A program made the translations under genes and the position numbers. From Oscillospiraceae bacterium (GTDB lineage Bacteria; Bacillota; Clostridia; Oscillospirales; Ruminococcaceae), in contig JAFXZM010000019.1 in the NCBI GenBank assembly GCA_017541275.1, positions 1 to 34,783 of the forward strand: 34,783 bases of DNA. Direction: 5' to 3'. How positions within the stretch are numbered: the first letter of the stretch is position 1; the number at the start of each line of letters is the position of its first letter. The notes under the pieces are model-generated. The model was not told the origin of the DNA and did not search any database. It saw nothing but the letters and a program-made list of their open reading frames with translations. Of this stretch, positions 8,376 to 26,200 are shown piece by piece.

Positions 8376-9026
8376 TTATTTCCGGCCCTCAACACAGATC
8401 CACGGCTTGCCGTCTTGACGCAGATGCACTGCCGTTTCCGCAAAGCCCGCCGCCGCAAACAGCGTTCGGAATGCCTCCGGCGTCGGGTTGAAAAGATTGT
8501 ATTTCCTTATGTTTTCACGCTCCTGCTCGCTGAGCTGCCCGCAGTCATATATATCCGCAATCAGCAGAAAACGGCCGCCGGGCTTCAGCACGCGCCGTAC
8601 CTCTGCCAGATTCTCTGCCGGTGACGGCCAGAAATAAAAGCTCTCGACCGTGATGATGCGGTCAAAGGTATCCTCTGCAAAGGGCAGCGCCTCGACGGAG
8701 GCCTCGATGATATCCATGCGCCCGGATGCGGCTGCCTCTGCATTGTATGCCAGCGCCGCTTCTACCGATACCGGCGAATAGTCCGCACCCGTCAGATGCC
8801 CCGCCGTGACGGTCTCTGCCATGCGGTGCAGTGCCGCTCCGCCGCCGCAGCCGATATCCAGTACATTGTGCGCAGGCTTCAGATCAAGAAAGCCAAGTCC
8901 CCATTCCGTGACTGCTGCATGGGATTCGTTCATGCGGCTGAGCATCAGCCGGCCGTATTCTCCCTCCGGTCTGCGCGGGTTGCCAAGCTCCGTGATATGC
9001 TCCGGCGCCGTCTGCTGCATACTCAT
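8376..9026 (-). CDS. Class I SAM-dependent methyltransferase
   Basis: A 216-residue Rossmann-fold methyltransferase of the UbiE/Methyltransf_11 type. Motif I (VLDIGCGGG) is at about 58-66, the acidic SAM-ribose position at GADYSP (about 80-85), ASVEALPF at about 108-115, and the post-motif III RRVLKPGGRFLLI at about 143-155. The first ATG (9032) lies one base from GGAGG and cannot use it. The ATG at 9026 is 7 bases away and is preferred. It is the last gene of the glycan cluster, starting 19 bases after the 800-residue glycosyltransferase. Sugar methylation is possible from context, but small-molecule methylation cannot be excluded. It is distinct from the methyltransferases at 17733 and inside 11960-14335. 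Confidence 0.82.
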   Translation of the reverse strand: MSMQQTAPEHITELGNPRRPEGEYGRLMLSRMNESHAAVTEWGLGFLDLKPAHNVLDIGCGGGAALHRMAETVTAGHLTGADYSPVSVEAALAYNAEAAASGRMDIIEASVEALPFAEDTFDRIITVESFYFWPSPAENLAEVRRVLKPGGRFLLIADIYDCGQLSEQERENIRKYNLFNPTPEAFRTLFAAAGFAETAVHLRQDGKPWICVEGRK

Positions 9027-9044
9027 TTTCATTCCTCCGTTCTG

Positions 9045-11447
9045 TTATGCCGTAATCACGGGAATCTCTGCGCGTGCTTCCCCGAATTCCAGCGTCAGCA
9101 GCCCGTGCAAAGGCATCGGCGGCAGCGCCAGCACCAGCTCCGGCTCGGTTCCCTCCGCCAGTCCGCAGAGCGCAAGCCGCTGCTCCGGTACGGCCTCTCC
9201 GCCGCCTGCCCTGACCCCATACACCAGCTCATGCTCCCGCTTCCTCACGGATTCATCCGTGCAGACGCGCAGACGCAGAACCGTATTCCGCGGCAGCTCC
9301 AGCAGTACCGGCACCGAAAATACCGCTTTGCCCTCCTGCTCCGTCAGCGTGATCTGCGGGAGCAGATGAAACCGGTTCAGCGAAAGCTCCGCAGAAAACC
9401 GCTGCTGCTGCTCTGCCGCATACTGCCTCCGCAGTGCGGCATTCCAGCGGGACTGCTTCTCGGCGCTGATCTCATAAAACCGCGCTGCATCGTATGTTTT
9501 CGGCAGCCCCTCAAAAATCTGCCCCCGCTCATACAGCACGTCATAGAAATTCTCAAATGCCGGTGTCCCCGGTTCGCACCAGAGCCGCCAATCACTGACC
9601 GTGCCCGGCCAGCAGGCGGTGCGGTAAGGCTGAACCGAAAAACAGTCTGCATGATATGCAATGCAGTAATTGAAATACGTGCTCCATTCGTCAAGACCCT
9701 GCGTCCGGATCTCCGGAAAGGCGCTGAGCAGCTCACAGTACAGCTTCCGGTCGATTGCCTGCGGCTGATGCGAGGAATATTGCAGCGCCGGCAAGCCCTG
9801 CTTTATCAGAAAATCCCGCGTCCGGAACATGCTCCGGTCATAAGACGTATAATTTCCCTGCGTTCCCTGCCATGCGCGGAGATCATAACAGACATACGCC
9901 TGATACCGGCCGTCCCGCAGGAAGAATTCCTCCGTCAGCGGGTACAGCGGACGGTAGTCGTCATCGGTCATGATGAATACACTGTCCAGCGGCGCTTTTT
10001 CCAGCATCAGGCAGCGCAGCAGAAAATTCCGCTCGGTATGATCCGCCGGGAGCGGCTGCCCTTCCAGCAGCTCCTCATCCGTGCAGAAGCGCAGCTTCAT
10101 CCGGCCGTGCCATGCCTCCGATAGTGCCTGCACGTTTTTCGCCGGACAGCAGACCAGCAGCTCCTCTATAAACGGCATGCAGGCATCCAGAAAGGGCAGC
10201 GTCCGCAGCAGATCGTCATTCCGTGCGGTCAGTACCGCCATCTGCCGGATATGCACCTCCGCCGGAACATTCCCTGCCTTTTTGCTGCATTTCTGCAATA
10301 CCTGCGACATTTCTGACGCGGTCTCATCCCATGTGCGCGGCCGGTAGGCACGGAGCCTCGCCCGCTTTTCGGCATACGCCGCCGGATCATCCAGCAGCGC
10401 TCTGACCGCTTTCACCAGCGATTCTACGCTCGTATTGTCAAAATAATCGGCGTATTCGCCGCCGACCTCGTGCAGCACAGGCAGATCGGATGCCAAAACC
10501 GGCGTGCCGTGCAGAAATGCCTCGACAACCGGCAGCCCGAAGCCCTCATTTTTTGTCGGGAATGCAACGCAGAGTGCATGTGCATACAGCTCTGCGACCG
10601 TTGCATCGTTCGGGGATTCCGCAAAGAAGAACCGTGTGCCGTTCAGCGGATGCGATGCCATTTTCTTCGCGAAGGCATCCATATTCCAGCCGATGCGCCC
10701 CGCAAATACAACCGATACATCCAGCGCCGCTAGCTGCTCCGCTGCATCCAGCAGCAGGGCATGATTCTTGCGCGGCTCAACCGTCCCGACCATCAGCACA
10801 TACCGGTGCTCCGGCAGCTTCGCCAGCAGCGCCGCATCCGGCTCCTCTGCGGATTTCGCGGCTGCGGCAAAGTCCGCACCCAGCGGAACAACCGTACACG
10901 CCGGCGCCGGTACGCCAAGCTCCCGGCACAGCCCGTGCAGCGCCGTCCGCGTCGCCTCTGCATTGCAGATCAGACGGTCTGCGGATCGCAGCACCGCATG
11001 CACCCAGAGCAAAAACTGCTGCATCGTCTGCGCGTGAAAATACTGCGGCTCTGTGACCGGAATCAGATCGTAAAGCTGCGACACGACCGTCACGCCCCGG
11101 CTCTTCAGCAGCGGAAACAGCCAGCCGCGCTGCATCGGCATATTCCACGCACTGTCCAGATCGAAAAATACTGCATCGGTCGGGATCTCCTGCGGCGTCA
11201 GCAGGCGCGGCGCTTCATCCTGAAACAGCGATGCCGCTCCGTCCCGGTATTTTGCCAGAAAGCCCGCCTCCGGAATCACACGCCATGTTCCGTGCGTGCC
11301 CGAATCGCTCAGCAGCGTGACCTCCAGTGCCGGATCCTTCAGAAAACGCAGTATAATCTCCTTCGCTACACGCTGGATGCCGGTCGTGAATTTCGTCAGG
11401 CAGAGGCGCGATACATCAACATATACACGGGTCTTTGACTGCTGCAT
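9045..11447 (-). CDS. Two-domain glycosyltransferase (GT4 plus Stealth/GT-A-like)
   Basis: An 800-residue cytoplasmic protein. Residues 1-390 form a GT-B, GT4-type glycosyltransferase. It has a TGIQRVAKE start region, VGTVEPRKNH at about 220-229, and the catalytic-type EX7E motif E301...E309 (EGFGLPVVE). Residues about 402-650 are a second domain. It has ITDDDY-like acidic residues D495-D497, SSHQPQAIDRK at about 558-568 and LDEWSTYFNY at about 585-594. This order recalls Stealth-type sugar-phosphate transferases or a GT-A fold, but the match is loose. Residues about 690-800 are beta-rich. The start codon at 11447 is 6 bases after the previous stop, whose last codons hold its ribosome-binding site (AAAGGAG). 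It probably adds more than one sugar to the exported polymer. Confidence 0.78.
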   Translation of the reverse strand: MQQSKTRVYVDVSRLCLTKFTTGIQRVAKEIILRFLKDPALEVTLLSDSGTHGTWRVIPEAGFLAKYRDGAASLFQDEAPRLLTPQEIPTDAVFFDLDSAWNMPMQRGWLFPLLKSRGVTVVSQLYDLIPVTEPQYFHAQTMQQFLLWVHAVLRSADRLICNAEATRTALHGLCRELGVPAPACTVVPLGADFAAAAKSAEEPDAALLAKLPEHRYVLMVGTVEPRKNHALLLDAAEQLAALDVSVVFAGRIGWNMDAFAKKMASHPLNGTRFFFAESPNDATVAELYAHALCVAFPTKNEGFGLPVVEAFLHGTPVLASDLPVLHEVGGEYADYFDNTSVESLVKAVRALLDDPAAYAEKRARLRAYRPRTWDETASEMSQVLQKCSKKAGNVPAEVHIRQMAVLTARNDDLLRTLPFLDACMPFIEELLVCCPAKNVQALSEAWHGRMKLRFCTDEELLEGQPLPADHTERNFLLRCLMLEKAPLDSVFIMTDDDYRPLYPLTEEFFLRDGRYQAYVCYDLRAWQGTQGNYTSYDRSMFRTRDFLIKQGLPALQYSSHQPQAIDRKLYCELLSAFPEIRTQGLDEWSTYFNYCIAYHADCFSVQPYRTACWPGTVSDWRLWCEPGTPAFENFYDVLYERGQIFEGLPKTYDAARFYEISAEKQSRWNAALRRQYAAEQQQRFSAELSLNRFHLLPQITLTEQEGKAVFSVPVLLELPRNTVLRLRVCTDESVRKREHELVYGVRAGGGEAVPEQRLALCGLAEGTEPELVLALPPMPLHGLLTLEFGEARAEIPVITA

Positions 11448-11453
11448 GCCGCC

Positions 11454-11933
11454 TCACTCCTTTCCCGCCAGCTTCTTCGCCAGCCTTTTCATCGGCCCGG
11501 GCATCCTCCGGTAAATGCGCAAAAGACGCTCCGGCATCGGCTGCGCCGCAACCTGCACCCGTACCCCTGCATCGGCATCCGTCAGCGGGAGCGGACAGCC
11601 CGTCAGCGGGCGCGAAAACATGTGGGCGGTGTATTCCTGCGAATGCAGAACCGAACGCAGCACTGCCGTCTGAAACTGCGGCCGCGGCAGGTCATACCGC
11701 CGGCTCCATGCTGCCCTTGTCTCTGCATCGACCGGCCGCTCCAGCAGCAGCAGAAATGCTGCCTCCAGAAAATCGGCATTCTCAAGACCCGCCAGCAGCG
11801 GATACCGCACCTGCTCCGGCTCTGCCTGCGACAGCACCGTGAATACCGCCGCAGAACAGGGCATCTCTGAACCCGCTGCGGCCATCCGCCGCGCTGCAAT
11901 CGCATACAGTGCGCCGGCTGTGTTCTGCTTCAT
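11454..11933 (-). CDS. Small DUF4214-like protein of the glycan cluster
   Basis: A 159-residue protein. Residues about 50-108 (ADFLEAAFLLLLERPVDAET, then QTAVLRSVLHSQEY) follow the pattern of DUF4214 repeats, in which a helix with LxRxxD precedes a helix ending in SxE. These repeats are often found attached to or beside glycosyltransferases. The C-terminal 30 residues are basic and proline/arginine-rich. I chose 11933 because the open frame upstream (to 11987) overlaps the preceding gene and lacks a better site; GGAAGG is in range. It is coupled to the 800-residue glycosyltransferase downstream. A scaffold or accessory role is inference. Confidence 0.6.
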   Translation of the reverse strand: MKQNTAGALYAIAARRMAAAGSEMPCSAAVFTVLSQAEPEQVRYPLLAGLENADFLEAAFLLLLERPVDAETRAAWSRRYDLPRPQFQTAVLRSVLHSQEYTAHMFSRPLTGCPLPLTDADAGVRVQVAAQPMPERLLRIYRRMPGPMKRLAKKLAGKE

Positions 11934-11959
11934 CGTTTCATCACGCCTTCCGTTATGTG

Positions 11960-14335
11960 TCAGTCTTTCTGCACGCAGGCAGTCCATGTCATCGGCTCAC
12001 TGCGGTATTCCGCAGGCAGCGGGTACAAGCCCTGCCCGACCGGAACCAGCGCCGTCAGCCGCAGACCGTTTGCCGCAAGCTCCTCCCGCAGCGTTTCCTT
12101 TGTCCAGAAAATATCGTAGATCGGATAATTTCCCCAGCCGTTCCGCGCACGGTGCGGCAGCTCGAAATTCCGGTTCGGTACATCAAACAGCAGCACACCG
12201 CCCTCCCGCAGCGCGTTCCGCAGCAGCGCCCAGAGCTTTTTCCGTGTGCCGTATTCATAATGCCGCAGGAACCGGAACACCGTGATCACATCAAACTTTC
12301 CCAGTATGCCGCCGCTGAGCAGGTCGGATTCCCGCAGCATGATCTCCGCATCCGGAAAGCGCCGCCGCAGTGCGCGCAGCATCGCCGGAGAGGCATCATA
12401 GGCACTGCATTTTCCGAACGGCAGCAGCTCCCCCAGTATGCGCCCCGTTCCGCTCGCGATATCCAGCAGCGTCAGGTCATTCCGGCTGCCGAAGAAATGC
12501 CGCAGCAGGCCGCGCACGCTCCCGCGCTCCATTATGTCAAAGCAGTTCTGCGGATAAACCGAAAATCGCTCCTCGGCATAGCCGTCCGCGACCTCCTGCC
12601 GCTGATAATATGCCTTCAGCGCTGCGGCACCCTTGACCAGATGCCGCTTTTCCAGCTTGAGCTGCCGGTTCCATTCATACAGCGTATGGACAGGCTCCGG
12701 AATCGCCGCCGCGATGATCTCCTCTGCCTCATGCACAAAGCCCGCCGCAGCGGTCAGCGCGTGCAGCCGGTTCTGCCGCCATGCCGCCGAAAATGCCGGA
12801 TACTGTGCCCGGACGGTTTTCAGCGCGGCTGTCAGTGCGGCGGCATCTGTGCCGTCTGCCGTCACGCCCATGCCGCAGGACGCAATCAGCTCCGAAATTC
12901 CCGACGCCGGCGACGCGGCTGCCGGTATGCCGAGCTGCATCGCTTCCAGTGCCGAAAGCGGACAGGCATGGTTATAATCTGCATCCGCATACGGAATCAG
13001 GACACAGTCAATTTCACTGTAAAATGCTGCCATGTCGCATTTGCCCGTGCGCAACTCGCAGTTTGCCGCTGTCTTCAGCACCTCCGGTACATGCACGTTC
13101 GTTTCATCCCGCCAGAGCACGATAAACCGCATGTCCGGATTCATCCGCACTGCTTCGCACAGTGCAGGAATGCCGCGGGATTCCGCCTGCTGCACCTCCA
13201 TCGGGGAGGACGCAAAGCCGACTGTGAACCGCTGCGGGTCAAATGCGCGCGGGGCTCGGTGCAGCACCGGCCGCGACGGGTCAATATACGGATACATCAC
13301 ACGCGGCCGCCGGAAGCCGTGCGATTCCAGCGTATCGGCGGCCTGTGCGGATGCGGTGTAATACCGGTGCAGGCCGTAGTCATTCAGATGCAGAAGCTCC
13401 TGCATGCGGCTGCCGCCAAGCCCCTGCGCGGGATTCTGCCCGCTGAGCCGCACGATCGCATTGCGCAGCAGCAGACAGTTATTCCCTGCCGTCAGCAGCT
13501 CCGGTGTGCTCTCGCAGATCACCAGCAGTGCCGGCTCATTGCGCGTGACCCATTCGCCCAGACGGTTCTCCGGCACCTTGCAGATATCACCCGCCTGCGT
13601 CACCTGACCGCCTGCCGGCTCGACCGATACCAGTACCGCCGGATACCGGCTCGCATGCCGCAGAAGCTGAAATAGATCATATGCCTCGTTGCGGATCGCC
13701 TCCATGCCCGCTGCGCTGCCGTAGCTCCGGCAGAGCACTGCAATCGGGCGCGCGCGCTCCGCTCCGACCTGCCGGCTCAGAAGCTCCTGAAGTGCGCGGT
13801 CATACTGTGTCTCCAATGCAGAAAGCGCTGCCTCCGAAGCGGCGGAATCCTCCGCCTTCTGTACTGCGTGAAATTCGCGGAACAGCGCCTCCGTTCCCAG
13901 CGCGGGCAGCTCTGTCAGCGGCTCTGTGCCCGCCTGCGTCCGGCTCTCCGGCGATGCCGCCGACAGCGTGCTGTCCAGCTCTGCCGTGAGCTGCTCCAGC
14001 GCCGCCTCCTGCTCCGCACGGCTAAGGCTCAGCGATTGCCGGTGCTCCTGCTTCAGCGTTGTCAGCTCCCGCACCGTCTGCTTCGTCAACTGCGCTACCT
14101 GCGCCTGCATCTCCGTCATCTGATCGACCAGCACGTTCATGACCTCAACCGCTGCCGCATTATAGCTGTTCTGCGCGGTGCCGAACGGCTGCACGTACCA
14201 CTCCGTATGCTTTTTGCCCATGCGCTGAAGCATCCCCGGCTTGTCATAGGGCGGAAGCTCCGAAAAGCTCGTTTTCAGCTTGTTCATCAGCTCCAGATTT
14301 CGCCGGATCCATTTCATGTCATCCTTCTGACTCAT
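11960..14335 (-). CDS. Coiled-coil / glycosyltransferase / methyltransferase fusion
   Basis: A 791-residue three-part protein. Residues about 55-120 are heptad-rich coiled coil (VEVMNVLVDQMTEMQAQVAQ, then QEAALEQLTAEL), with more helix at 150-190. Residues about 195-520 are a GT-B/GT4-like glycosyltransferase. The usual EX7E motif is altered: E464 is present (PLSALEAMQLG) but the first position is H456. Residues about 585-791 are a class I methyltransferase with LLDIASGTG at 623-631 and FDVITVFRFLRHYEYG at about 681-696. The ATG at 14335 follows AAAGGGGG; the frame further upstream is non-coding. By analogy with WbdD (methyltransferase plus coiled coil) and WsaE (methyltransferase plus rhamnosyltransferases), it may add a terminal sugar and a methyl cap that sets chain length. 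That role is inference. Confidence 0.8.
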   Translation of the reverse strand: MSQKDDMKWIRRNLELMNKLKTSFSELPPYDKPGMLQRMGKKHTEWYVQPFGTAQNSYNAAAVEVMNVLVDQMTEMQAQVAQLTKQTVRELTTLKQEHRQSLSLSRAEQEAALEQLTAELDSTLSAASPESRTQAGTEPLTELPALGTEALFREFHAVQKAEDSAASEAALSALETQYDRALQELLSRQVGAERARPIAVLCRSYGSAAGMEAIRNEAYDLFQLLRHASRYPAVLVSVEPAGGQVTQAGDICKVPENRLGEWVTRNEPALLVICESTPELLTAGNNCLLLRNAIVRLSGQNPAQGLGGSRMQELLHLNDYGLHRYYTASAQAADTLESHGFRRPRVMYPYIDPSRPVLHRAPRAFDPQRFTVGFASSPMEVQQAESRGIPALCEAVRMNPDMRFIVLWRDETNVHVPEVLKTAANCELRTGKCDMAAFYSEIDCVLIPYADADYNHACPLSALEAMQLGIPAAASPASGISELIASCGMGVTADGTDAAALTAALKTVRAQYPAFSAAWRQNRLHALTAAAGFVHEAEEIIAAAIPEPVHTLYEWNRQLKLEKRHLVKGAAALKAYYQRQEVADGYAEERFSVYPQNCFDIMERGSVRGLLRHFFGSRNDLTLLDIASGTGRILGELLPFGKCSAYDASPAMLRALRRRFPDAEIMLRESDLLSGGILGKFDVITVFRFLRHYEYGTRKKLWALLRNALREGGVLLFDVPNRNFELPHRARNGWGNYPIYDIFWTKETLREELAANGLRLTALVPVGQGLYPLPAEYRSEPMTWTACVQKD

Positions 14336-14361: not shown

Positions 14362-14655
14362 TTACGATTGAACGGTATTGCGCCGGCTTTTCCGTTTCCT
14401 GTGTCTGTCTCCTGCTGCGAATGCAAGAAACAGAACAAGCGCCGGAAGTCCGATACATGAGGCAAATATGCCCTTTCGCGATCTCACTGTCTGTCGGAAT
14501 GTGAACAGAACTGTCGGCATGGAAGCTCCGCCGATGATCGGCTTGGAATATGCCTGAATCAGTGAATAACCGATCAGTAATAACAGATATATTATAAATA
14601 CTGCAAGACACAGATATTTCATCCGCTTGCCGTTCTTTTTTTCTTCCCTTTTCAT
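14362..14655 (-). CDS. Small two-helix membrane protein
   Basis: A 97-residue protein with two hydrophobic helices (about 14-35, LCLAVFIIYLLLLIGYSLI, and about 65-84, FASCIGLPALVLFLAFAAG) and very basic ends (KREEKKNGKRMK; RHRKRKSRR). Both termini are predicted to be cytoplasmic. Its ATG overlaps the stop codon of wzt (ATGA), so it is translationally coupled to the exporter ATPase. An earlier ATG at 14670 lies inside wzt and is less likely. I do not recognise a family. An accessory subunit of the Wzm/Wzt exporter is one possibility, from context only. Confidence 0.65.
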   Translation of the reverse strand: MKREEKKNGKRMKYLCLAVFIIYLLLLIGYSLIQAYSKPIIGGASMPTVLFTFRQTVRSRKGIFASCIGLPALVLFLAFAAGDRHRKRKSRRNTVQS

Positions 14656-15845
14656 TGCAGCCCTTCCCATGTGTGGCAGATGCGCGCGACGCCGGTTTCG
14701 TCGATCGTGTTGTATACCGTGAACTGCACCGCCTTTGCTGCATAATCATATGCAAACATATCCCTGCGGCGCAGTGCGGCATCAAACCAGTACCGCCCTG
14801 CAATCAGATTCACGGCGGTGAATTTGCAGCGGAGCTCCCCCGATGCCGCCGGCTTCAGATACGGCAGATGCTCCCGCTCCGTGTTCGTGCCGTAGCAGAG
14901 CACATTGTCTGCACGGTAAAGCGCCAGCCCGACCAAAACCGGCTCCGCTGCCTCCGGCTCTGCTTCATACCGCAGCACCAGCTCTGCGGCTTCGCCCGTG
15001 CAGAGGCGGTCGATCCGCTCGCCCGCTCCGTTTTCCAGATAAATCTCCGTAAAATGCACCGGCGATTCCGTTTTTTCCTCTGCCGCGGTCTGTGCCGGTG
15101 CCGCCGCGGGCTTCCGCTGCTGCCCCATGAATGCCATATATTCCGGATGCACCTCGTTCGGTGCGCCCTCTGCCCGGATACGGCCGCCGTCCAGCCAGAC
15201 CGTGCGGTCGCAGATGCGCTCTAACTGCGCCAGACTGTGCGACACAATCACGACCGTTGTGCCGGCTGCCTTGATCTCCATGAGCCGGTCAAAGCATTTC
15301 GCCTGAAACGCCGCATCGCCGACTGCGAGAATCTCGTCGATCAGCAGGATATCGGCGCTGACATGAATCGCTACCGAAAACGCAAGCCGCATATACATGC
15401 CCGATGAATAGGTGCGGACAGGCTCGTCCAGATACGGCTCCAGCTCCGAAAATGCGATGATCTCATCCATGCGCGCTTCGATCTCCCGGCGCGTCAGGCC
15501 GAAAATTGAGGCGTTCGTGTATATGTTTTCACGGCCCGTCATATCCGGGTGAAAGCCCGCGCCCAGCTCGATCAGCGAGCTGACCCGGCCGCTGCATGTG
15601 ACACTGCCTGCATCCGGATACAGAATACGGCTGATGAGCTTTAACAGCGTCGATTTGCCGCAGCCGTTTTTGCCGATCAGGCCCACTGCTTCCCCCTGCT
15701 TTACGGTCAGCGTGACGCCGTCCAGCACGGTGCGCTGCTCGTACCGCCGACGCTTCGGCGACAGTACCCTGTCCTTCAGTCCGCTGCCGCGGTCGCTGTA
15801 AATGCGGAAGCTCTTTTTCAGGTCTTGAATTTCGATCGCGGACAA
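14652..15845 (-). CDS. wzt: Polysaccharide ABC exporter ATPase, Wzt type
   Basis: A protein of about 397 residues. The nucleotide-binding domain (1-240) has Walker A GLIGKNGCGKST at about 55-66, the YSSGM signature at about 146-150, Walker B DILLIDE at about 165-171 and the H-loop VIVSHS. Residues about 265-397 are a beta-rich extension like the Wzt C-terminal domain, which in E. coli O8/O9a binds the modified end of the finished polymer. Start choice: GTG at 15854 overlaps the GGGAGG site, while TTG at 15845 lies 8 bases from it, so TTG is preferred; no in-frame ATG fits. It pairs with wzm upstream and overlaps the small membrane protein downstream. It powers export of a lipid-linked glycan across the inner membrane. 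Confidence 0.9.
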   Translation of the reverse strand: MSAIEIQDLKKSFRIYSDRGSGLKDRVLSPKRRRYEQRTVLDGVTLTVKQGEAVGLIGKNGCGKSTLLKLISRILYPDAGSVTCSGRVSSLIELGAGFHPDMTGRENIYTNASIFGLTRREIEARMDEIIAFSELEPYLDEPVRTYSSGMYMRLAFSVAIHVSADILLIDEILAVGDAAFQAKCFDRLMEIKAAGTTVVIVSHSLAQLERICDRTVWLDGGRIRAEGAPNEVHPEYMAFMGQQRKPAAAPAQTAAEEKTESPVHFTEIYLENGAGERIDRLCTGEAAELVLRYEAEPEAAEPVLVGLALYRADNVLCYGTNTEREHLPYLKPAASGELRCKFTAVNLIAGRYWFDAALRRRDMFAYDYAAKAVQFTVYNTIDETGVARICHTWEGLQ

Positions 15846-15854
15846 CGCATTCAC

Positions 15855-15986: not shown

Positions 15987-16763
15987 CTATAATACCTCTG
16001 CAAAGCGCTTTTGCAGCTTCTCAAAAACCGCTGTGCCGATGCACAGCACCAGTATGCTCATGCCCGCTGCGAGCAGCAGATGCTTCCCGTCCGGCGCCTT
16101 CTGATAATACAAAATATCACGGTACGCCAGTATCAGCGGCGACATCGGATTCAGCAGATATACCCGCCGCCACTGCGCCGGAATGAACTCCATTCCGTAT
16201 ACGACCGGTGACAGATACATCCACGCCATGCTCAGTACGCCCATGATGTGCTCCAGATCGCGCAGATAGACCGTCAGCGCCGAGGTCAGCAGGTTCATGC
16301 CCAGCACCAGTATGAACTGTACGGCGATCACCGGAACAAGCCACGGCAGTGCCGCAAAATTGATGCCCAGATGCATCACCGCAATCACTGCAAACACAAT
16401 CACAAACGAAAACAGCATGCTGCACAGGCTGCTGACCGTATACGCAAGCGGCAGCACCGAACGCGGAAAATAAATCTTCCGGATCATGTTTTTCTGATCG
16501 AGAATCAGCTTCGCGCCCGTCGTCAGCGCTGAGGCAAAGTACATCCACGGCACCAGCGCGACAAATAAATGCAGATAATAATGCGGCACCGCACTTTTCA
16601 GAATTACCGAAAAGACCAGCGTATACACCAGTAATTGCAGCAGCGGGTTCAGGAATGTCCAAAGAAATCCCAGCACGCTGCCCTGATAGCGCCCCTTCAG
16701 ATCCTTGCGGACAAAGCTCGCAATCATCGTGCGGTACTGATACAGCTCACGGAGCCGACGCAT
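15987..16763 (-). CDS. wzm: Polysaccharide ABC exporter permease, Wzm type
   Basis: A 258-residue ABC-2 membrane protein with six predicted transmembrane helices. The family-typical N-terminus is RKDLKGRYQGSVLGFLWTFL (about 19-38), followed by the helix LVYTLVFSVIL. LNPMSPLILAYRDILY (about 202-217) lies before the last helices. It forms a homodimer channel with two Wzt subunits. An open frame extends upstream to 17207, but those residues overlap rmd in another frame; the ATG at 16763 has AGGAGG 6 bases away. The gene overlaps the 3' end of rmd by 17 bases, so the two are coupled. Confidence 0.92.
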   Translation of the reverse strand: MRRLRELYQYRTMIASFVRKDLKGRYQGSVLGFLWTFLNPLLQLLVYTLVFSVILKSAVPHYYLHLFVALVPWMYFASALTTGAKLILDQKNMIRKIYFPRSVLPLAYTVSSLCSMLFSFVIVFAVIAVMHLGINFAALPWLVPVIAVQFILVLGMNLLTSALTVYLRDLEHIMGVLSMAWMYLSPVVYGMEFIPAQWRRVYLLNPMSPLILAYRDILYYQKAPDGKHLLLAAGMSILVLCIGTAVFEKLQKRFAEVL

Positions 16764-17712
16764 GAAGTACCTCCTCCTTCGCATGCCGCAGCATGTCTGC
16801 GAGCGTTTCATGCAGCGGAATCTCCGGTGCCCAGCCGGTGTCCGCCGTGATTTTTCTGATATCCGCACACAGCAGCGGCGTTTCCGCCGGCCGGAATTTC
16901 TGCGGGTCGGTCTCAATGCGGAAATGCACGCCGGACAGCGCCCGGATCTCCTCCAGCAGCGCCGAGAGCGGCTGTGCTCTGCCGCTGCCGACATTATATA
17001 CCGCGCCTGCACTGCCACGCTCCAGCAGCAGCGCATAGGCACGGATGATATCACGGACATCTGTGAAATCACGCTGTACCGTGAGATTGCCCGTCCGGAT
17101 GACCGGCTCCCGCATGCCCAGCGCAATTTCCGCCGCCTGTCTGCAAAAATCAGCAAGCACAAACTGTGTGCTCTGCCCCGCGCCTGCATGGTTGAATGCC
17201 CGTACACAAATCACCGGCAGGCTGTACGCTCTGACATATACCCCGCAGAGCTGCTCCGCTGCCGCCTTCGTGGCTGCATAGATATTCCCCGGATGCAGCG
17301 GCGTTTCTTCGCCGACCGGACACTGCTCCGGCTTCAGTACCCCGTATTCCTCCGCCGACCCGATGCTCAGTATCCGCGGCATCCGCTCAAGCGCCCGCGC
17401 CGCTTCGAGCAGGTTGACCGTCCCCGTCACATTCACCTGCGCGGTCATTGCAGGACGCTTCCATGACAATGCGACCGAGCTCTGCGCCGCCAGATGCAGG
17501 ATGCAGTCCGGCTTTATTTCGTGCAGCAGGCCGCGCATCGCCTCTGCATCGGTGAGATCGGCGTCATGCACGGTGCAGAGCTTCTGTATCGCCTCCGGAA
17601 TGCGCTCCTGCGGCAGCTTCGCGGCATGAACCGCCATTCCCTGTCTGCCGGCAAAATGCCGGATCGCATATCCGCCGGCAAAGCCCGCCGCTCCTGTTAT
17701 CAGTATCCGCAT
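16747..17712 (-). CDS. rmd: GDP-4-dehydro-6-deoxy-D-mannose reductase (Rmd-like)
   Basis: A 321-residue extended SDR enzyme. The NAD(P)-binding GxxGxxG is at 7-13 (GAAGFAG), the LHLAAQSSV strand at about 72-80, catalytic Ser at 116/119 and Y145-x3-K149 (YAATK). RDFTDVRDIIRAY (about 216-228) and YNVGSG (about 242-247) are typical of GDP-sugar members. Rmd reduces the 4-keto intermediate made by Gmd to GDP-D-rhamnose. Closely related reductases make GDP-6-deoxy-D-talose, and the sequence alone does not fully separate them. No epimerase-reductase for GDP-L-fucose is seen. The start at 17712 follows AAGGAGG. It overlaps wzm and shares the cluster with gmd and manC. Confidence 0.82.
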   Translation of the reverse strand: MRILITGAAGFAGGYAIRHFAGRQGMAVHAAKLPQERIPEAIQKLCTVHDADLTDAEAMRGLLHEIKPDCILHLAAQSSVALSWKRPAMTAQVNVTGTVNLLEAARALERMPRILSIGSAEEYGVLKPEQCPVGEETPLHPGNIYAATKAAAEQLCGVYVRAYSLPVICVRAFNHAGAGQSTQFVLADFCRQAAEIALGMREPVIRTGNLTVQRDFTDVRDIIRAYALLLERGSAGAVYNVGSGRAQPLSALLEEIRALSGVHFRIETDPQKFRPAETPLLCADIRKITADTGWAPEIPLHETLADMLRHAKEEVLHASAP

Positions 17713-17732: not shown

Positions 17733-18500
17733 TTATCGTTCGTCGTCCTCTGCTCTGAACAGCAGATTGCTCACCCGCTCCGTGATCCAGACCTCTGTTT
17801 CGCCGATTTCCAGCCCGTAACCGGCAATGACCTGCGCATTATGCTGCTTCAGCAATGCGTCCAGTCCGGGCATCTGCTCCGTTTTTCGCGGAAACCGGAT
17901 GCTGCTCTCAAACAAATCATGCAGCACAAGACCCTGCTCCCCGCAGAGCGCCTGCCATTCCGCCGCCGTGTAAAGCCGGATATGGCCGTCCGGTTTCAGC
18001 CGCATATACGCATCGGCAAAGCCGTTTTCATCGCCGGGATTCGGCGCGGGGTCGGAGAGGAAGAATGCGCCGCCCTGCTTCAGGACGCGCCGCACCTGCG
18101 CGATGCTGCCCCGGATATCCGGAAAATGATGCAGGGAATACCGCGTGATAACCAGATCGAATGCGGCGTCCGCAAACGGGAGCGTCATGCCGTTCCCGGC
18201 TACAAAATCAAGATTGTGCAGATGCTCCGCCGCTGCACGGATGCGGTTCTGTTCCAGTGTCTTCTCCGCGATATCCAGTCCGGTGACTGCGAGCGCCGGA
18301 TGCCGTGCCGCCAGCGCAAATGCCAGATATCCGCTCCCTGTGCCGAGGTCAAGAACACGCATCCCGCGGCGGAGCGGCAGAAACGCGAGAATCGCGTCCA
18401 GATGCGCCTGATCCTGCGTTTGTCTGTTGTAATAGCTGCCCTCGGAAAAGCGCGCCTCAAAGCTGGTTTTCGCAGCCTGAATGCTGTTTGCGGTCTCCAT
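17733..18500 (-). CDS. Class I SAM-dependent methyltransferase
   Basis: A 255-residue UbiE/Methyltransf_11-type enzyme. Motif I is VLDLGTGSGYLA at about 49-60, the acidic ribose position lies in VTGLDIAEKTL (about 73-83), motif II is FDLVITRYSLHHF at about 118-130, and RRVLKQGGAFFLSDP follows at about 142-156. The ATG at 18500 directly follows the stop of the upstream glycosyltransferase (CTGAATGG), with GGAGGA as ribosome-binding site, so the genes are coupled. The acceptor is unknown. Position inside the glycan cluster suggests methylation of a sugar, but the domain is of a broad small-molecule type. Confidence 0.85.
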   Translation of the reverse strand: METANSIQAAKTSFEARFSEGSYYNRQTQDQAHLDAILAFLPLRRGMRVLDLGTGSGYLAFALAARHPALAVTGLDIAEKTLEQNRIRAAAEHLHNLDFVAGNGMTLPFADAAFDLVITRYSLHHFPDIRGSIAQVRRVLKQGGAFFLSDPAPNPGDENGFADAYMRLKPDGHIRLYTAAEWQALCGEQGLVLHDLFESSIRFPRKTEQMPGLDALLKQHNAQVIAGYGLEIGETEVWITERVSNLLFRAEDDER

Positions 18501-19661
18501 TCAGTCCTCCGTTTTCCGCAGGATACCCTGCCCGCTGAGCAGAACCTCCCGCGTTTTTTGCATCACATGTGACAGCCGGAATTCCCGCAGCACCCGTTCA
18601 TGCGCTGCTGCGCCGTATTTCGCACGCAGCCAGTCATCGGCAAGCAGTGTGTCCAGCGCCGAAGCCAGTGCTTCGGCATCGCCGGGCGGAACCGTCAGGC
18701 CGGTCTGACCGTCAAGGCTCACAAGCGGGACACCCGTCGGCAGCGCGGTGTTGATGACCGGTTTGCCGTAGTACATTGCCTCAAGCTGCACAATGCCGAA
18801 CGCCTCGCTGTTTGCGACCGACGGCAGCACAAATATATCACAGTCTGCAAACATGTCGCGCAGCTCCGGCGTCATGCGGCAGCCCAGAAAATGCACGCGG
18901 TCTGCGATGCCGAGCGACTGTGCCTGCGCCCTCAGCTCCGGCTCCAGCACCCCGCCGCCCGCATAAAACAGTTCTGCATGCCCCTGCGTTTTCGCAAAGG
19001 CGCGCAGCAGAACGTCAGCGCCCTTGTAGTAAACCAGCCGCCCGGCAAAGAGAATCTTCTTTGCGGCTTTATCATGCAGCGCCGCATCGAGCGGATGCTG
19101 TCCGGGGCGGCGGTCATATGCCTGCGGGTCGATGCCGTAGGGGATGACGACGCATTTCTCCCGGTAATCGGGCAGGTACGGCGAGCTGTCGATATGCGCC
19201 TGCGTTGCGGTGATGATGACATCCGCTCGCTTCAGAAGCCGCTTCATCAACGGCTGATACAGCTTCAGCAGCTTCCTCTGCCGCACGACATCGCTGTGCC
19301 ATGCGACCGCCACGCGCCCCTTGTATCCCGAAAGCAGCAGCGATAAATCTGCGATCGGAAACGGCAGGTGCAGCTCGACTGCGTCCGAGACCATGACCCG
19401 CCGCCGGAAATCTCCGATATAGGACGGAGATACCGGACAGGAGGCCACTGTGCCGAGGCTCGATGAATACGTCACCGGGATGCCGTTTATTTTATCGCGC
19501 TTCGTCAGGCCCGCTCCGTCGCGGCAGCACAGGACACTGACCTTTGCGTATCTGCGCATGTATTCCGCCGTCTGCTGCATCACGGTCTCAATGCCGCCGA
19601 TATGCGGCGCATACGCCTTGCCCGCGATCAGCAGGCGCGGCTTCTCACTGTGTCTTTCCAT
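18501..19661 (-). CDS. Glycosyltransferase family 4
   Basis: A 386-residue GT-B enzyme. It has an N-terminal acceptor-side domain with PHIGGIETVMQQ (about 19-30), VAWHSDVVRQRK in the middle, then the nucleotide-sugar domain with FAGRLVYYKGADVLLRAF (about 202-219) and the EX7E motif SEAFGIVQLEAM (about 284-295). It resembles GDP-mannose-dependent mannosyl- and rhamnosyltransferases, which fits the GDP-sugar genes in the cluster, but the donor is inferred. The ATG at 19661 follows CGGAG by about 8 bases. An upstream ATG at 19682 lacks a site. It overlaps the end of the GNAT gene by 17 bases and abuts the methyltransferase downstream. Confidence 0.88.
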   Translation of the reverse strand: MERHSEKPRLLIAGKAYAPHIGGIETVMQQTAEYMRRYAKVSVLCCRDGAGLTKRDKINGIPVTYSSSLGTVASCPVSPSYIGDFRRRVMVSDAVELHLPFPIADLSLLLSGYKGRVAVAWHSDVVRQRKLLKLYQPLMKRLLKRADVIITATQAHIDSSPYLPDYREKCVVIPYGIDPQAYDRRPGQHPLDAALHDKAAKKILFAGRLVYYKGADVLLRAFAKTQGHAELFYAGGGVLEPELRAQAQSLGIADRVHFLGCRMTPELRDMFADCDIFVLPSVANSEAFGIVQLEAMYYGKPVINTALPTGVPLVSLDGQTGLTVPPGDAEALASALDTLLADDWLRAKYGAAAHERVLREFRLSHVMQKTREVLLSGQGILRKTED

Positions 19662-20220
19662 ATGCGCCGCTCCGGTATTCATCTGCCAGTATGCTGTACC
19701 ACACCTCATCGACAATCACGCCCCGCGCAAAGCCGTGCTGCCGCAGAACGCCCTCCTTCGTCATGCCGATCTTCTGCATGACGCGCCCCGATTTCGGGTT
19801 CTCAATGTTGTGTGTCGCCTCAATGCGCAGCATGCCGACTGTCTCAAACAAATAATCCAGCACCGCCTCTGCCGCTTCCGGCATATAGCCCTGCCCCCAG
19901 AGTGATCTGCTCAGGCACCAGCCCAGCGCGGCACAGGCTGTCTCTGCTGCGAAATGTGTGACCGAGATATTCCCGACCGGCATTCCGTCGGCTTTCCGCT
20001 CCAGCACCCAGTTATAGGTCTCCGGCTTTTCATAGTCCGCAATCCATATGTCCAGCAGTGCCGCCGTTTCTGCGGCGCTCCTGTGCGGCTCCCATGTCAG
20101 ATACCGCGCGACCTCTGCGTCTGACGTCCAGTTGTCATACACCCGCTGCGCGTCCTCCGGCCGGAACCGCCGCAGAATCAGACGCTCGGTTTCCAGTGTG
20201 ACAGTGCCGCTGTGCTGCAT
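19645..20220 (-). CDS. GNAT-family N-acetyltransferase (RimJ/RimL-like)
   Basis: A 191-residue GNAT of the Acetyltransf_3 type. It begins LETERLILRRFRPEDA (about 9-24). The acetyl-CoA loop lies around WGQGYMPEAAEAVLDYLFE (about 109-127), and NIENPKSGRVMQKIGMTKEG (about 139-158) is the typical C-terminal signature. Relatives acetylate ribosomal protein N-termini or amino sugars and antibiotics. Its place between two glycosyltransferase genes, overlapping one and 6 bases from the other, points to modification of a sugar or of an envelope component, but this is context only. The ATG at 20220 has GGGAG 9 bases away. Confidence 0.85.
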   Translation of the reverse strand: MQHSGTVTLETERLILRRFRPEDAQRVYDNWTSDAEVARYLTWEPHRSAAETAALLDIWIADYEKPETYNWVLERKADGMPVGNISVTHFAAETACAALGWCLSRSLWGQGYMPEAAEAVLDYLFETVGMLRIEATHNIENPKSGRVMQKIGMTKEGVLRQHGFARGVIVDEVWYSILADEYRSGAYGKTQ

Positions 20221-20226
20221 GATGCT

Positions 20227-21378
20227 TCACTCCCTTGCCAGCTCTTTGTATACGTTCAGCAGCTTTTCTGCTGCATTTTCCCAGCTCATTTCCTGTGCGC
20301 GGATGAATCCCCGCTGCCGCAGTTTCTCCCGCAGGCCGGTATCTGTCAGCAGCCGCTCCATGCCCTTTGCGATCGAAGCGGTGCTTTTTGCATGACAGTA
20401 CAGCGCCGCTTTCCCCGCCGCCTCCGGCAGAGATGCTGCATCGGATGTCAGCACCGGACAGCCGCAGGCCATTGCCTCCAGCGGCGGCATCCCGAAGCCC
20501 TCGTACAGCGACGGAAATACAAATGCCAGTGCGCCCGCATACAGCCCCGCCATATCGCCCGACGGGATATATGACGGGAACAGCACATGCTGCGTGAGCC
20601 GTTTCTCCCGCACCGCTTCAAAAATCTGCCCGTACTGCCAGCCCTTGCCGCCCGCAAGCACCAGTGAAGGTGCGTCTGCGTACTTCTCCCGCAGCTTTGC
20701 ATAGGCATGCACCAGCCGTACCAGATTCTTGCGCGGCTCCAATGTGCCGAGATACAGAAAATAGCGCTCCGGCAGGTGATGCGCCGCTTTTACGCGGGCG
20801 ATCTCTGCATCGGACGGCGGCGCAAAGCGTTTTGTGTCAACGCCGCAGGGCACGACCCGCACCTTTTCTGCGAATTCCGGGTAGTATTTTGCGATCTCCC
20901 GCCGCGAAAATTCACTGTCCGTAACAATGCGGTCTGCACGCTGCATCGAACGCTTCAGCCCCGTTTTCAGCAGAAGCCGCGTCCGTGTGCGCATCGTTTC
21001 CGGATAGGCGTGCAGTACCATGTCATGCACCGTCACGACCGTTTTTCCGTGAACCCCCGGCGGCACGATATAATTGAAAAAATGTGTGATATCTGCCCAG
21101 CTTCCCTGAAACATGCGGTACGGAACCGGCACGAAATTCGTCAGCATCCGATAGGCAAGCGGCGAAAACCGTGCAGGATGCAGCGGCGTGTTCTTCTGCA
21201 CAAACGGCTGCATCCGCCGCACCTTTTCCTCCGGACTGCGCAATGTGAAATATTCAAAACGGTACTGCATCTCCGGATGCAGCCGCGTCATTGCTGCCGT
21301 CAGGTTCGCCTCGCACCAGCCCACGCCGGAGATCAGATCGCCCGTAAGCGGGGAGGCGTCAAATGCTATATGCATCAT
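20227..21378 (-). CDS. Glycosyltransferase family 4
   Basis: A 383-residue GT-B enzyme of the mannosyltransferase-like GT4 group. Recognisable parts are VVTVHDMVLHAYPE (about 112-125), DRIVTDSEFSRREIAKYYP (about 148-166), YLGTLEPRKNLVRLVHAYAK (about 208-227) and the EX7E motif YEGFGMPPLEAMACG (about 293-307). Such enzymes often transfer mannose or rhamnose from GDP sugars in O-antigen and S-layer glycan pathways. The ATG at 21378 overlaps the gmd stop (ATGA), so the two are coupled. With the glycosyltransferases at 18501 and in the two large proteins, it gives the cluster at least four transferase domains. Confidence 0.9.
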   Translation of the reverse strand: MMHIAFDASPLTGDLISGVGWCEANLTAAMTRLHPEMQYRFEYFTLRSPEEKVRRMQPFVQKNTPLHPARFSPLAYRMLTNFVPVPYRMFQGSWADITHFFNYIVPPGVHGKTVVTVHDMVLHAYPETMRTRTRLLLKTGLKRSMQRADRIVTDSEFSRREIAKYYPEFAEKVRVVPCGVDTKRFAPPSDAEIARVKAAHHLPERYFLYLGTLEPRKNLVRLVHAYAKLREKYADAPSLVLAGGKGWQYGQIFEAVREKRLTQHVLFPSYIPSGDMAGLYAGALAFVFPSLYEGFGMPPLEAMACGCPVLTSDAASLPEAAGKAALYCHAKSTASIAKGMERLLTDTGLREKLRQRGFIRAQEMSWENAAEKLLNVYKELARE

Positions 21379-22391
21379 CGCTGCTGCTTCACCAGCGCCA
21401 GATCGTGCTGCACCATGCGCGTCACCAGCTCGTCAAAGCCGATCTCCCGCTTCCAGCCCAGCTCCCGCTCCGCCTTGGTCGGGTCGCCCAGCAGCAGCTC
21501 GACCTCCGCCGGACGGTAAAACGCCGGATTCACCCGCACGACCGTCCGGCCGCTGACCTCGTCTATGCCAATGGTGTGCATGCCGTCGCCCTGCCATGTC
21601 AGCTCCATGCCCGCGGCGCGGAATGCACATTCCGCAAATTCCCGCACCGACCGCGTTTCTCCGCTCGCTATCACGTAATCATCCGGCTTCTCCTGCTGAA
21701 GCATCAGCCACATCGCCCGGACATAATCCGCCGAATGCCCCCAGTCGCGCTTCGCGTCCAGATTGCCAAGCTCCACACAGTCCTGCATACCAAGCGAGAT
21801 GCGCGCCGCTGCATCCGTGATCTTCCGCGTGACAAATTCATAGCCGCGCCGCTCCGATTCGTGATTGAACAGAATTCCGCAGCAGGCGAACAGCCCGAAG
21901 CTCTCACGGTAATTCTTCGTGATCCAGTGGCCGTACAGCTTCGCGACACCGTACGGGCTGCGCGGGTAAAACGGCGTGTGCTCGTTCTGCGGGATCGCCT
22001 GCACCTTGCCGAACATCTCCGATGTTGAGGCCTGATAGAATTTCGCTGACGGCTTTACCGTGCGGATTGCCTCCAGCATGTTCGTCACGCCGATCGCGTT
22101 GATCTCGGACGTCGCTACCGGCTGCTCCCAGCTCGTCGCAACAAAGCTCTGCGCCGCCAGATTGTAGACCTCGTCCGCCTGCGAAGTGCGCATCGCCGCA
22201 ATCAGCGAGACCAGATCGGTCACGTCTGCATAGATAAACCGTACCTGCCCCCGCAGATGCGCGGCGTTGCCGTAGTCCGCAGAGCTCTTGCGGCGCATGA
22301 TGCCCCAGACCTCATAGCCCTTTTCCAGCAGCAGCTCCGCCAGATACGAGCCGTCCTGCCCTGTAATGCCGGTAATCAGTGCTTTTTTCAT
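21375..22391 (-). CDS. gmd: GDP-mannose 4,6-dehydratase
   Basis: A 338-residue extended SDR enzyme. It has the NADP-binding GITGQDGSYLAE at 8-19, YNLAAQSFV at about 76-84, the family-diagnostic catalytic Thr/Ser-Glu (STSEMFG, about 122-128) and Y147-x3-K151 (SPYGVAK). FNHESERRGYEFVTRKI is strongly conserved in Gmd. It converts GDP-D-mannose to GDP-4-keto-6-deoxy-D-mannose, the branch point to GDP-D-rhamnose, 6-deoxytalose or L-fucose; rmd in this cluster points to D-rhamnose. The frame upstream to 22565 overlaps manC, and the ATG at 22391 follows AGGAGGAAAACCG. It overlaps the next glycosyltransferase by four bases. Confidence 0.96.
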   Translation of the reverse strand: MKKALITGITGQDGSYLAELLLEKGYEVWGIMRRKSSADYGNAAHLRGQVRFIYADVTDLVSLIAAMRTSQADEVYNLAAQSFVATSWEQPVATSEINAIGVTNMLEAIRTVKPSAKFYQASTSEMFGKVQAIPQNEHTPFYPRSPYGVAKLYGHWITKNYRESFGLFACCGILFNHESERRGYEFVTRKITDAAARISLGMQDCVELGNLDAKRDWGHSADYVRAMWLMLQQEKPDDYVIASGETRSVREFAECAFRAAGMELTWQGDGMHTIGIDEVSGRTVVRVNPAFYRPAEVELLLGDPTKAERELGWKREIGFDELVTRMVQHDLALVKQQR

Positions 22392-22428
22392 CGGTTTTCC
22401 TCCTGTTTTCCAAATCATTGCGCCGCGA

Positions 22429-23502
22429 TCACAAAAGCTCGCCGCGGCCCTGCTCGCGCAGCATATCGGTGATCTTGCGGATGCTCTGCGCGGAATCCGC
22501 GTCGCAGACCAGCAGCGCATCCGGCGTATCGACCACGATGATGTTTTCCAGCCCGACTGCCGCAAGCAATCGGCCGCTGCTCTGCAAAATGCAGTTTTTT
22601 GTGCCGGCCGTCAGCACATCGCCGCTGCGGTAGTTGCCGTTCGTGTCGGTCTTGGCAATGCGGCGCAGCGCCGGCCAGCTCCCGACATCGTCCCAGCCAA
22701 AGCTCCCCGGAATCGTAAACAGCCGCTTTTCATGCTCCAATACGCCGAAATCGACCGAGATCGAAGGCATTTGCGGGAATTCTGCATCAAGCACCGCCCC
22801 GAATTCCGGCGTGCCGCTCGCTTCGTACAGCTTCTGCGCGATCTCGCCTACCGCCGGAAGATGCGTCCGCACCGCTTCGAGATAAACATCTGTGCGCCAT
22901 GCAAACATGCCGCTGTTCCACAGGTATTCGCCCGATTCGACATAGCGCCGCGCGGTCTCCGCATCCGGCTTTTCACGGAAGCTGTCTACCTGATAGACCC
23001 CCGCCGGCGCATCCGATGCGCGCGAAAATGCGATATAGCCATAGCCCGTTTCCGGATAGGACGGTGTTATGCCGATCGTCACAAGGCCGCGGGTTTCCTC
23101 GGCCGCCGCCGCCGCACGGGTCAGCGCGTCCGCACAGATCGCCTCGTGCCGGACAATGTGGTCTGCCGGCAGCACCAGCATCACACTGCTCCCGAACCGC
23201 TTTTCTATCACCGCTGCCGCATAGGCGATGCACGGTGCGGTATTCCGCGAGACAGGCTCCCGCAGCAGGTTCTCTGCGGGCAGCGCCGGAAGCTGCTCCT
23301 GCACCAGTGACCGGTATTCGCCGTTTGTTACCACAAATACACGCTCCGGCTGCATTAGCCCGCATACCCTGCGGAACGTCTTTTGCAGCATGGTCTCCCC
23401 GTCGCCCGTCAGCGACAAAAACTGCTTCGGGCAGTGCGCTCTGCTCTGCGGCCAGAACCGCTCACCGATGCCGCCTGCCATGATCACTGCTGTCTGATTC
23501 AT
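22429..23502 (-). CDS. manC: Mannose-1-phosphate guanylyltransferase
   Basis: A 357-residue GT-A-like nucleotidyltransferase that makes GDP-mannose from GTP and mannose-1-phosphate. The signature MAGGIGERFWPQSR-x4-PKQF is at 8-28, REPVSRNTAPCIAYAA at about 81-96, LPADHIV at about 110-116, GYGYI at about 153-157 and FREKPDAETA at about 174-183. The length fits the monofunctional type; the C-terminal phosphomannose isomerase domain of proteobacterial ManC is absent. The start at 23502 follows AAAGGAAG. It lies 37 bases upstream of gmd and supplies its substrate. Phosphomannomutase is not in the window, so mannose-1-phosphate must come from elsewhere. Confidence 0.94.
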   Translation of the reverse strand: MNQTAVIMAGGIGERFWPQSRAHCPKQFLSLTGDGETMLQKTFRRVCGLMQPERVFVVTNGEYRSLVQEQLPALPAENLLREPVSRNTAPCIAYAAAVIEKRFGSSVMLVLPADHIVRHEAICADALTRAAAAAEETRGLVTIGITPSYPETGYGYIAFSRASDAPAGVYQVDSFREKPDAETARRYVESGEYLWNSGMFAWRTDVYLEAVRTHLPAVGEIAQKLYEASGTPEFGAVLDAEFPQMPSISVDFGVLEHEKRLFTIPGSFGWDDVGSWPALRRIAKTDTNGNYRSGDVLTAGTKNCILQSSGRLLAAVGLENIIVVDTPDALLVCDADSAQSIRKITDMLREQGRGELL

Positions 23503-26102: not shown

Positions 26103-26167
26103 GCCGCAGACCTCCTCTCTGACGACCGCTGCATGAAAATTCTGCCCGTTTTTTCGGAAAACATACA

Positions 26168-26200
26168 CAGCCCTTGCATTTCATCGGAACGCAAGGGCTG
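26168..26200 (-). terminator. Hairpin between metallophosphoesterase and glycan genes
   Basis: Positions 26168-26177 (CAGCCCTTGC) and 26191-26200 (GCAAGGGCTG) form a perfect 10-bp stem with a 13-base loop. It lies 18 bases beyond the metallophosphoesterase stop. On the minus strand it is followed by TGTATGTTTTCC, a weak T tract. It may be a partial terminator or attenuator upstream of the sugar-phosphate transferase. No strong promoter was recognised between here and 26102. Confidence 0.5.

What the first reader, a model, noticed from the sequence alone, without database searches (positions are those of the whole stretch)
11960..14335. Coiled-coil + glycosyltransferase + methyltransferase protein as a possible chain-length ruler and cap
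In E. coli O9a, WbdD joins a capping methyltransferase to a coiled coil that sets chain length, and the Wzt C-domain reads the cap. In Geobacillus, WsaE joins a methyltransferase to rhamnosyltransferases. This 791-residue protein carries all three elements in one chain, encoded just after a wzt with a C-terminal domain. The order (coiled coil first, methyltransferase last) differs from both. The transferase EX7E motif has His for the first Glu, so it may be specialised or inactive.
Basis: partly seen in the sequence, partly recalled or inferred. Interest (0 to 1): 0.75.

Follow-up and report, generated by a model that had tools for sequence, protein, structure and literature searches.

The report
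Coiled-coil sugar-chain capping enzyme
A gut bacterium makes one long protein with a rod-like helix, a sugar-adding part and a methyl-adding part, which probably finishes a cell-surface sugar chain so that its exporter recognises it; its active sites are altered where the exporter's reading part is missing or changed.

Summary
The gene lies on the minus strand, 11960-14335 (791 aa), just downstream of wzm and a wzt with Wzt_C. AlphaFold2 gives one helix (residues 34-127), a complete GT4-type GT-B domain with His456 for the first EX7E Glu, and a class I SAM methyltransferase. The order is not unique: the same N-terminal module was found in 12 other Bacillota genomes, 9 with a methyltransferase after it on the same protein, 10 with a wzt directly upstream. 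The GT between coil and methyltransferase is the unusual part.

New evidence for a cap writer: in 23 of 29 rows (window included) the His-x7-Glu site and SAM motif are intact, and all 23 have a conserved Wzt_C. In the other 6 the GT site is altered or gone (SAM motif in 4); their genomes have no Wzt_C (5) or a strongly diverged one (1), in about five lineages. So the His site is probably active, and this protein and Wzt_C probably act as cap writer and reader. The ruler role is plausible but untested. Unexplained: the protein survives in genomes that lost the pathway. New variant of a known kind.

The parts
11960..14335 (-). gene H: 791-aa N-module + coiled coil + GT4-type GT-B + class I SAM methyltransferase
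14156..14254 (-). N-terminal module, residues 28-60 (family motif KRLGRKLTFWYVxPFGxxQNxFN); shared with other Wzt-linked proteins; membrane-proximal role inferred
   Evidence: hydrophobic moment ordinary
13955..14236 (-). single long helix / coiled coil, residues 34-127, about 14 nm if straight
12701..13753 (-). GT-B glycosyltransferase domain, residues 195-545
12944..12970 (-). His456-x7-Glu464, the EX7E site with His for the first Glu
11972..12715 (-). SAM methyltransferase region, residues 541-788
12440..12469 (-). SAM motif I, residues 623-632 (LLDIASGTGR)
14652..15854 (-). wzt, ABC ATPase with C-terminal Wzt_C domain (cap reader by analogy; Wzt_C at 14682-15062)
15987..16784 (-). wzm, ABC-2 permease
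   Evidence: Pfam; under the cut-off of the galactan model
16747..17712 (-). NAD-dependent sugar dehydratase/reductase family; GDP-4-keto-6-deoxymannose reductase by context (inferred)
   Evidence: family only; no equivalog cut-off reached
21375..22412 (-). gmd, GDP-mannose 4,6-dehydratase
   Evidence: over cut-off
22429..23502 (-). manC-like mannose-1-phosphate guanylyltransferase
   Evidence: 338 bits, under the cut-off of the longer fused model
24738..26168 (-). polyprenyl glycosylphosphotransferase (chain initiation)
   Evidence: over cut-off
18501..19715 (-). GT4-like glycosyltransferase
   Evidence: family-level matches under the models' cut-offs
20227..21378 (-). GT4-like glycosyltransferase
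   Evidence: family-level matches under the models' cut-offs
11454..11987 (-). 177-aa protein, no Pfam match; DUF4214-like by eye
   Evidence: no match
9045..11447 (-). 800-aa GT4-containing protein (J800)
17733..18500 (-). separate small methyltransferase
8376..9032 (-). separate small methyltransferase
   Evidence: family-level matches under the models' cut-offs

Best explanation
H is the chain-terminating cap writer of an ABC-exported, probably D-rhamnose-containing cell-surface glycan. Its N-terminal module holds it at the assembly site near the membrane (inferred). The 94-residue helix oligomerises and carries the GT and the methyltransferase at its far end (helix predicted; oligomer inferred). 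The GT, using His in place of the usual first EX7E Glu, adds a terminal sugar and the methyltransferase methylates it, a two-step cap comparable to WbdD's phosphate-then-methyl (inferred). Wzt_C reads the finished end and the chain is exported (by analogy). Co-loss of H's active site with Wzt_C is shown; the cap's chemistry and length control are not.
For: wzt directly upstream in 23 of 29 named loci. In L054, wzm-wzt-H stands without the other pathway genes in the 22 kb held. His-x7-Glu and SAM motif intact in 23 of 29 rows, all with a conserved Wzt_C; GT site altered in the other 6. Of those 6, five have no Wzt_C match in the whole genome, and the sixth (L057) has a Wzt_C 16.3 identity points below expectation from its ATPase domain (sd 3.9, next lowest locus -5.2). 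Tree: 5 changes, at least 4 forced; 4 of 4 independent pairs on well-supported branches go the same way. The N-module and the methyltransferase are each similar to those of distant Wzt-linked proteins (hhalign E 2.8e-10 and 4.8e-10). gmd and a manC-like gene lie in the same cluster.
Against: L034 and L050 lost only the GT site and keep the SAM motif. H persists in genomes without full-length wzt, rmd or J800 matches, with L032-L034 dN/dS of about 0.13-0.28 where dS could be estimated, so it has some use without the exporter. L057 keeps wzt next to an altered H. Four independent pairs cannot reach p < 0.05. The N-module is not notably amphipathic. No oligomer, chain-length or glycan data. The 29 named relatives are MAGs.
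Confidence: 0.6

Rival explanations
1. WsaE-like: the GT builds the repeat or adaptor, and the methyltransferase caps it; the coil is a scaffold, not a ruler.
For: WsaE joins a capping methyltransferase to polymerising rhamnosyltransferases and is encoded next to wzt (PMC2943079, passages). The GT4 fold is complete. Methylation by WsaE was chain-length independent in vitro.
Against: WsaE has two GT domains and its methyltransferase N-terminal; H has one GT, with His at the EX7E site, and the cluster has separate GT4-like genes.
Confidence: 0.25
2. H is chiefly a non-catalytic scaffold; its enzymatic parts are optional and decay often.
For: Genes with altered sites remain open. The N-module has the lowest dN of six domains in 5 of 6 compared pairs that include an altered member, against 3 of 9 intact pairs. 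Four same-genus genomes keep H without a wzt or rmd match.
Against: 23 of 23 rows with a conserved Wzt_C keep both sites intact; GT and methyltransferase are better conserved than the coil among them.
Confidence: 0.1
3. The methyltransferase decorates sugars along the chain rather than the end, and the Wzt_C link reflects shared inheritance of the cluster only.
For: Clusters are inherited and lost as blocks; the window cluster holds two further small methyltransferases.
Against: Wzt_C diverged in L057 far more than its ATPase domain, and the GT site decays although the gene survives the block loss.
Confidence: 0.05

Closest known systems
Module-coil-methyltransferase proteins directly downstream of wzt in other Bacillota (L062, L063, L067, L068, L071-L073, L087) and in Pseudomonas asturiensis plasmid NZ_CP047266.1 (L074)
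   Same: wzt-like gene upstream (Wzt_C scanned and found in L063, L074 and L087), N-module (Bacillota), long proline-poor stretch, C-terminal class I methyltransferase
   Different: No GT between coil and methyltransferase; uncharacterised as far as my searches show
WbdD (E. coli O9a)
   Same: Methyltransferase plus coil; cap required for Wzt-dependent export (PMC3482155, passages)
   Different: WbdD is methyltransferase - kinase - coil, with the polymerase-recruiting part C-terminal; H has the reverse polarity and a GT in place of the kinase
Klebsiella O7 ORF6 and O12 WbbB
   Same: One chain with coil, terminator and GT modules (PMC11231755, abstract and passages)
   Different: Terminator N-terminal and polymerising GTs C-terminal; H has both GT and methyltransferase after the coil
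WsaE (Geobacillus stearothermophilus)
   Same: Gram-positive; GT plus capping methyltransferase; gene next to wzt (PMC2943079, passages)
   Different: Methyltransferase N-terminal, two GTs; no coil mentioned in the passages read

Membership tests
Coiled-coil chain terminators (WbdD/WbbB/O7-ORF6 kind) | long coiled coil in the terminator protein | tested here: met
   helix 34-127; periodicity over the family, peak 3.6; a cruder heptad test not significant for the window protein
Coiled-coil chain terminators (WbdD/WbbB/O7-ORF6 kind) | cap-adding enzyme at the far end of the coil | tested here: inconclusive
   GT and methyltransferase both follow the helix in the models; which end is at the membrane is not shown
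Coiled-coil chain terminators (WbdD/WbbB/O7-ORF6 kind) | coil length sets glycan length | not testable with these tools
   needs mutants and glycan analysis
Coiled-coil chain terminators (WbdD/WbbB/O7-ORF6 kind) | linked to an ABC exporter (Wzm/Wzt) | tested here: met
WbdD family proper | kinase domain between methyltransferase and coil, methyltransferase first | tested here: not met
   GT-B domain instead, reverse order
WbdD family proper | trimer through the coil | not testable with these tools
   only monomers can be predicted here
WsaE | N-terminal methyltransferase followed by two rhamnosyltransferase domains | tested here: not met
GT4 glycosyltransferases | GT-B fold | tested here: met
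GT4 glycosyltransferases | EX7E motif | tested here: not met
   His456-x7-Glu464; built like a GT4, but a non-canonical member at most
class I SAM methyltransferases | class I fold with glycine motif I | tested here: met
   SAM binding itself not tested

The most novel reading that the evidence does not exclude
H defines a two-step cap writer in which a GT4-type enzyme with a catalytic His adds a terminal sugar that the fused methyltransferase then methylates, at the end of a ruler running in the opposite polarity to WbdD. It co-evolves with the Wzt_C cap reader. When reader and pathway are lost, the protein is repeatedly kept as an anchor-and-rod with its GT (and often its methyltransferase) disabled, serving a second, unknown role.
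Probability: 0.3. Interest if true: 0.7.

Novelty: new variant of a known kind. Interest (0 to 1): 0.55.

Why it matters
The rules for chain capping, chain length and export quality control that I found in print come from a few Gram-negative O antigens and one S-layer glycan. Here a gut and rumen Gram-positive lineage offers natural losses: where the cap reader is missing or changed, the writer's active site is altered too, while the anchor and rod remain. That makes writer-reader matching testable from sequence, and suggests that rulers of opposite polarity recur in Bacillota.

Tried and rejected
A fused-kinase (WbdD) reading: no kinase domain matched, GT-B instead. WbdD chains were not among the 60 of 88 PDB matches shown for the methyltransferase profile, nor among the 50 rows; neither excludes kinship. 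Phage origin: the distant relative P0002 had no match in 'phages'; H itself was not searched there. 'Dead GT': rejected as the main reading because the altered site is invariant in 23 of 23 rows with a conserved Wzt_C. 'Unique domain order': rejected. A simple a/d heptad test was weak and is reported; an earlier form timed out. Foldseek 'pdb' never ran; pdb_via was used. Literature: nine searches; none of the listed titles or abstract starts describes this protein or the N-module, I read passages of four papers only, and the library lacks most subscription journals.

Full report
The gene. Window 11960-14335 on the minus strand encodes 791 residues (P0001). The frame stays open upstream to a TTG at 14803, but relatives start at the equivalent of the ATG at 14335. 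It follows wzm and a wzt with a C-terminal Wzt_C domain. The same strand carries a polyprenyl glycosylphosphotransferase, a manC-like gene, gmd, a second dehydratase/reductase, and GT4-like and methyltransferase genes. GDP-D-rhamnose as the precursor is my inference from gmd plus the second enzyme; no model at its cut-off names the latter.

Coil. In 29 rows the stretch is 53-122 residues long and holds no proline. Averaged over 23 non-redundant sequences, hydrophobicity peaks at a period of 3.6 (p 0.0005 over 66 columns), with hydrophobic columns mostly spaced 3 and 4 apart; per-sequence power is 5.56 against 1.71 (sd 0.24) after shuffling. A period of 3.6 fits an amphipathic helix as well as a coiled coil. 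A cruder a/d test was not significant for the window protein (p 0.33) and gave p < 0.05 in 4 of 29. Differences in length are often 4 or 8 residues, not 7. Oligomerisation was not tested.

Family. Close relatives occur in 24 of 29 same-genus genomes besides the window's own and in 29 named loci, all MAGs of Ruminococcus/Oscillospiraceae/Clostridia. wzt lies directly upstream in 23 of 29; L054 has wzm-wzt-H without the other pathway genes in the 22 kb held. L058 holds only the N-terminus and was dropped from motif counts, leaving 28 relatives plus the window protein (29 rows). L031 is cut within the methyltransferase after motif I and was kept.

A natural experiment. In 23 of 29 rows both the NHACxxxAxE-type site and the SAM motif are intact. 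In six the GT site is altered or deleted: L032, L034, L050, L053, L057, L059; the SAM motif is lost in L032, L053, L057 and L059 but kept in L034 and L050. The genomes of L032, L034, L050 and L053 have no full-length wzt match at E 1e-40 and no Wzt_C match. That of L059 has an ATPase match without the C-domain, and no Wzt_C match. L057's neighbour keeps a Wzt_C over the family cut-off, but it is the outlier of the set: 30.9% identity to the window's C-domain with 68.6% in the ATPase domain, against 42-46% and 68-70% for the four other distant loci; its mean residual is -16.3 points, sd 3.9, next lowest locus -5.2. L056, intact but not next to wzt, has wzt on another contig. For L051, L052, L054 and L055 Wzt_C was seen in the locus, not by a genome search. 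On the tree the altered rows need 5 changes, at least 4 forced by supported branches; 4 of 4 independent pairs agree (5 pairs exist on the best tree), too few for significance (sign test 0.125). Fisher's test on rows (23/0 against 0/6, p 2e-6) and on full-length wzt in same-genus genomes (19/1 against 0/4, p 0.0005) ignores kinship. 'Wzt_C conserved' was scored by me after seeing L057; with L057 counted as wzt-present, there are 3 pairs, which agree in nearly all random pairings.

What remains. In L032, L034, L050 and L053 a metallophosphoesterase gene that flanks the cluster in the window lies within about 1.5 kb upstream of H, as if the cluster between them had been cut out. No rmd (E 1e-50) or 800-aa GT (E 1e-30) match was found in their genomes. 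H is not obviously a pseudogene: L032-L034 dN/dS is about 0.13 in the N-module and 0.18-0.28 in other domains where dS is finite. The N-module has the lowest dN of six domains in 5 of 6 compared pairs with an altered member and in 3 of 9 intact pairs (pairs chosen by me, some sharing members). Other same-genus genomes lack both H and full-length wzt (G009, G017, G025, G027); G025 kept the 800-aa GT without H; G026 has wzt near the start of a contig and no H. MAG completeness is 77-98% for these genomes, so single absences are weak.

Wider family. A profile of the N-module matches 5 of 291 class genomes, and two broader ones match 9 and 10 of the same 398 phylum genomes, own genome included. 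Without the window's genome these are 12 genomes (two genera twice); in 10 of 12 a wzt-like gene lies directly upstream. In G644 none was found in the 15 kb held, and in G548 the contig ends just after the module. Nine of the 12 proteins carry a methyltransferase after the coil: eight by Pfam, L072 by alignment to them. L061 and L070 run off the sequence held, and in L064 module and coil stand alone before a separate GT. The coil of these was judged by eye; in the eight aligned proteins 63-171 residues after the motif are proline-free. Profile comparison joins H to this family at both ends: N-module E 2.8e-10, methyltransferase E 4.8e-10. In Pseudomonas asturiensis plasmid NZ_CP047266.1 a Wzt_C ATPase is followed by a coil-methyltransferase protein, a GT and a GDP-mannose-dehydratase-family gene. 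So coil first, methyltransferase last is a recurring arrangement, and H is that arrangement with a GT inserted.

Mechanism. WbdD's cap is needed for export and its coil spaces terminator from polymerase (PMC3482155 and PMC11231755, passages). By analogy H's far end writes the cap and Wzt_C reads it. Shown: architecture (predicted), linkage, co-loss. Inferred: membrane end, oligomer, two-step sugar-then-methyl cap, length control. The N-module's hydrophobic moment is ordinary (0.31 in the window protein), so membrane contact rests on analogy.

Verdict. A sound observation; the capping idea gains support, the ruler idea is untested, and the order is less special than thought. The GT insertion with a conserved His, the co-loss with Wzt_C and the survival of H without its pathway are the interesting parts.

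Noticed in passing
L032, L034, L050, L053: The glycan cluster appears cut out between a metallophosphoesterase gene and H, with H (and in L032 and L034 a small methyltransferase) left behind.
   Followed up: partly
L033 6140-8029 and similar gaps in other relatives: Many relatives carry a gene of about 600 aa between wzm and wzt that the window lacks; the L033 copy has no Pfam match and looks polytopic by eye.
   Followed up: partly
window 11454-11987: 177-aa gene after H, no Pfam match, resembles DUF4214 by eye; a DUF4214 match (under its cut-off) also begins the Pseudomonas asturiensis coil-methyltransferase protein.
   Followed up: no
L064 1381-1830: A stand-alone 150-aa N-module plus coil between wzt and a separate GT4-like gene.
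   Followed up: partly
L057 wzt (8669-9964): Wzt whose cap-reading domain has diverged far more than its ATPase domain.
   Followed up: yes
window 32633-34771: Large secreted protein with dockerin-like repeats and a glycoside hydrolase 43-like part, by eye only.
   Followed up: no
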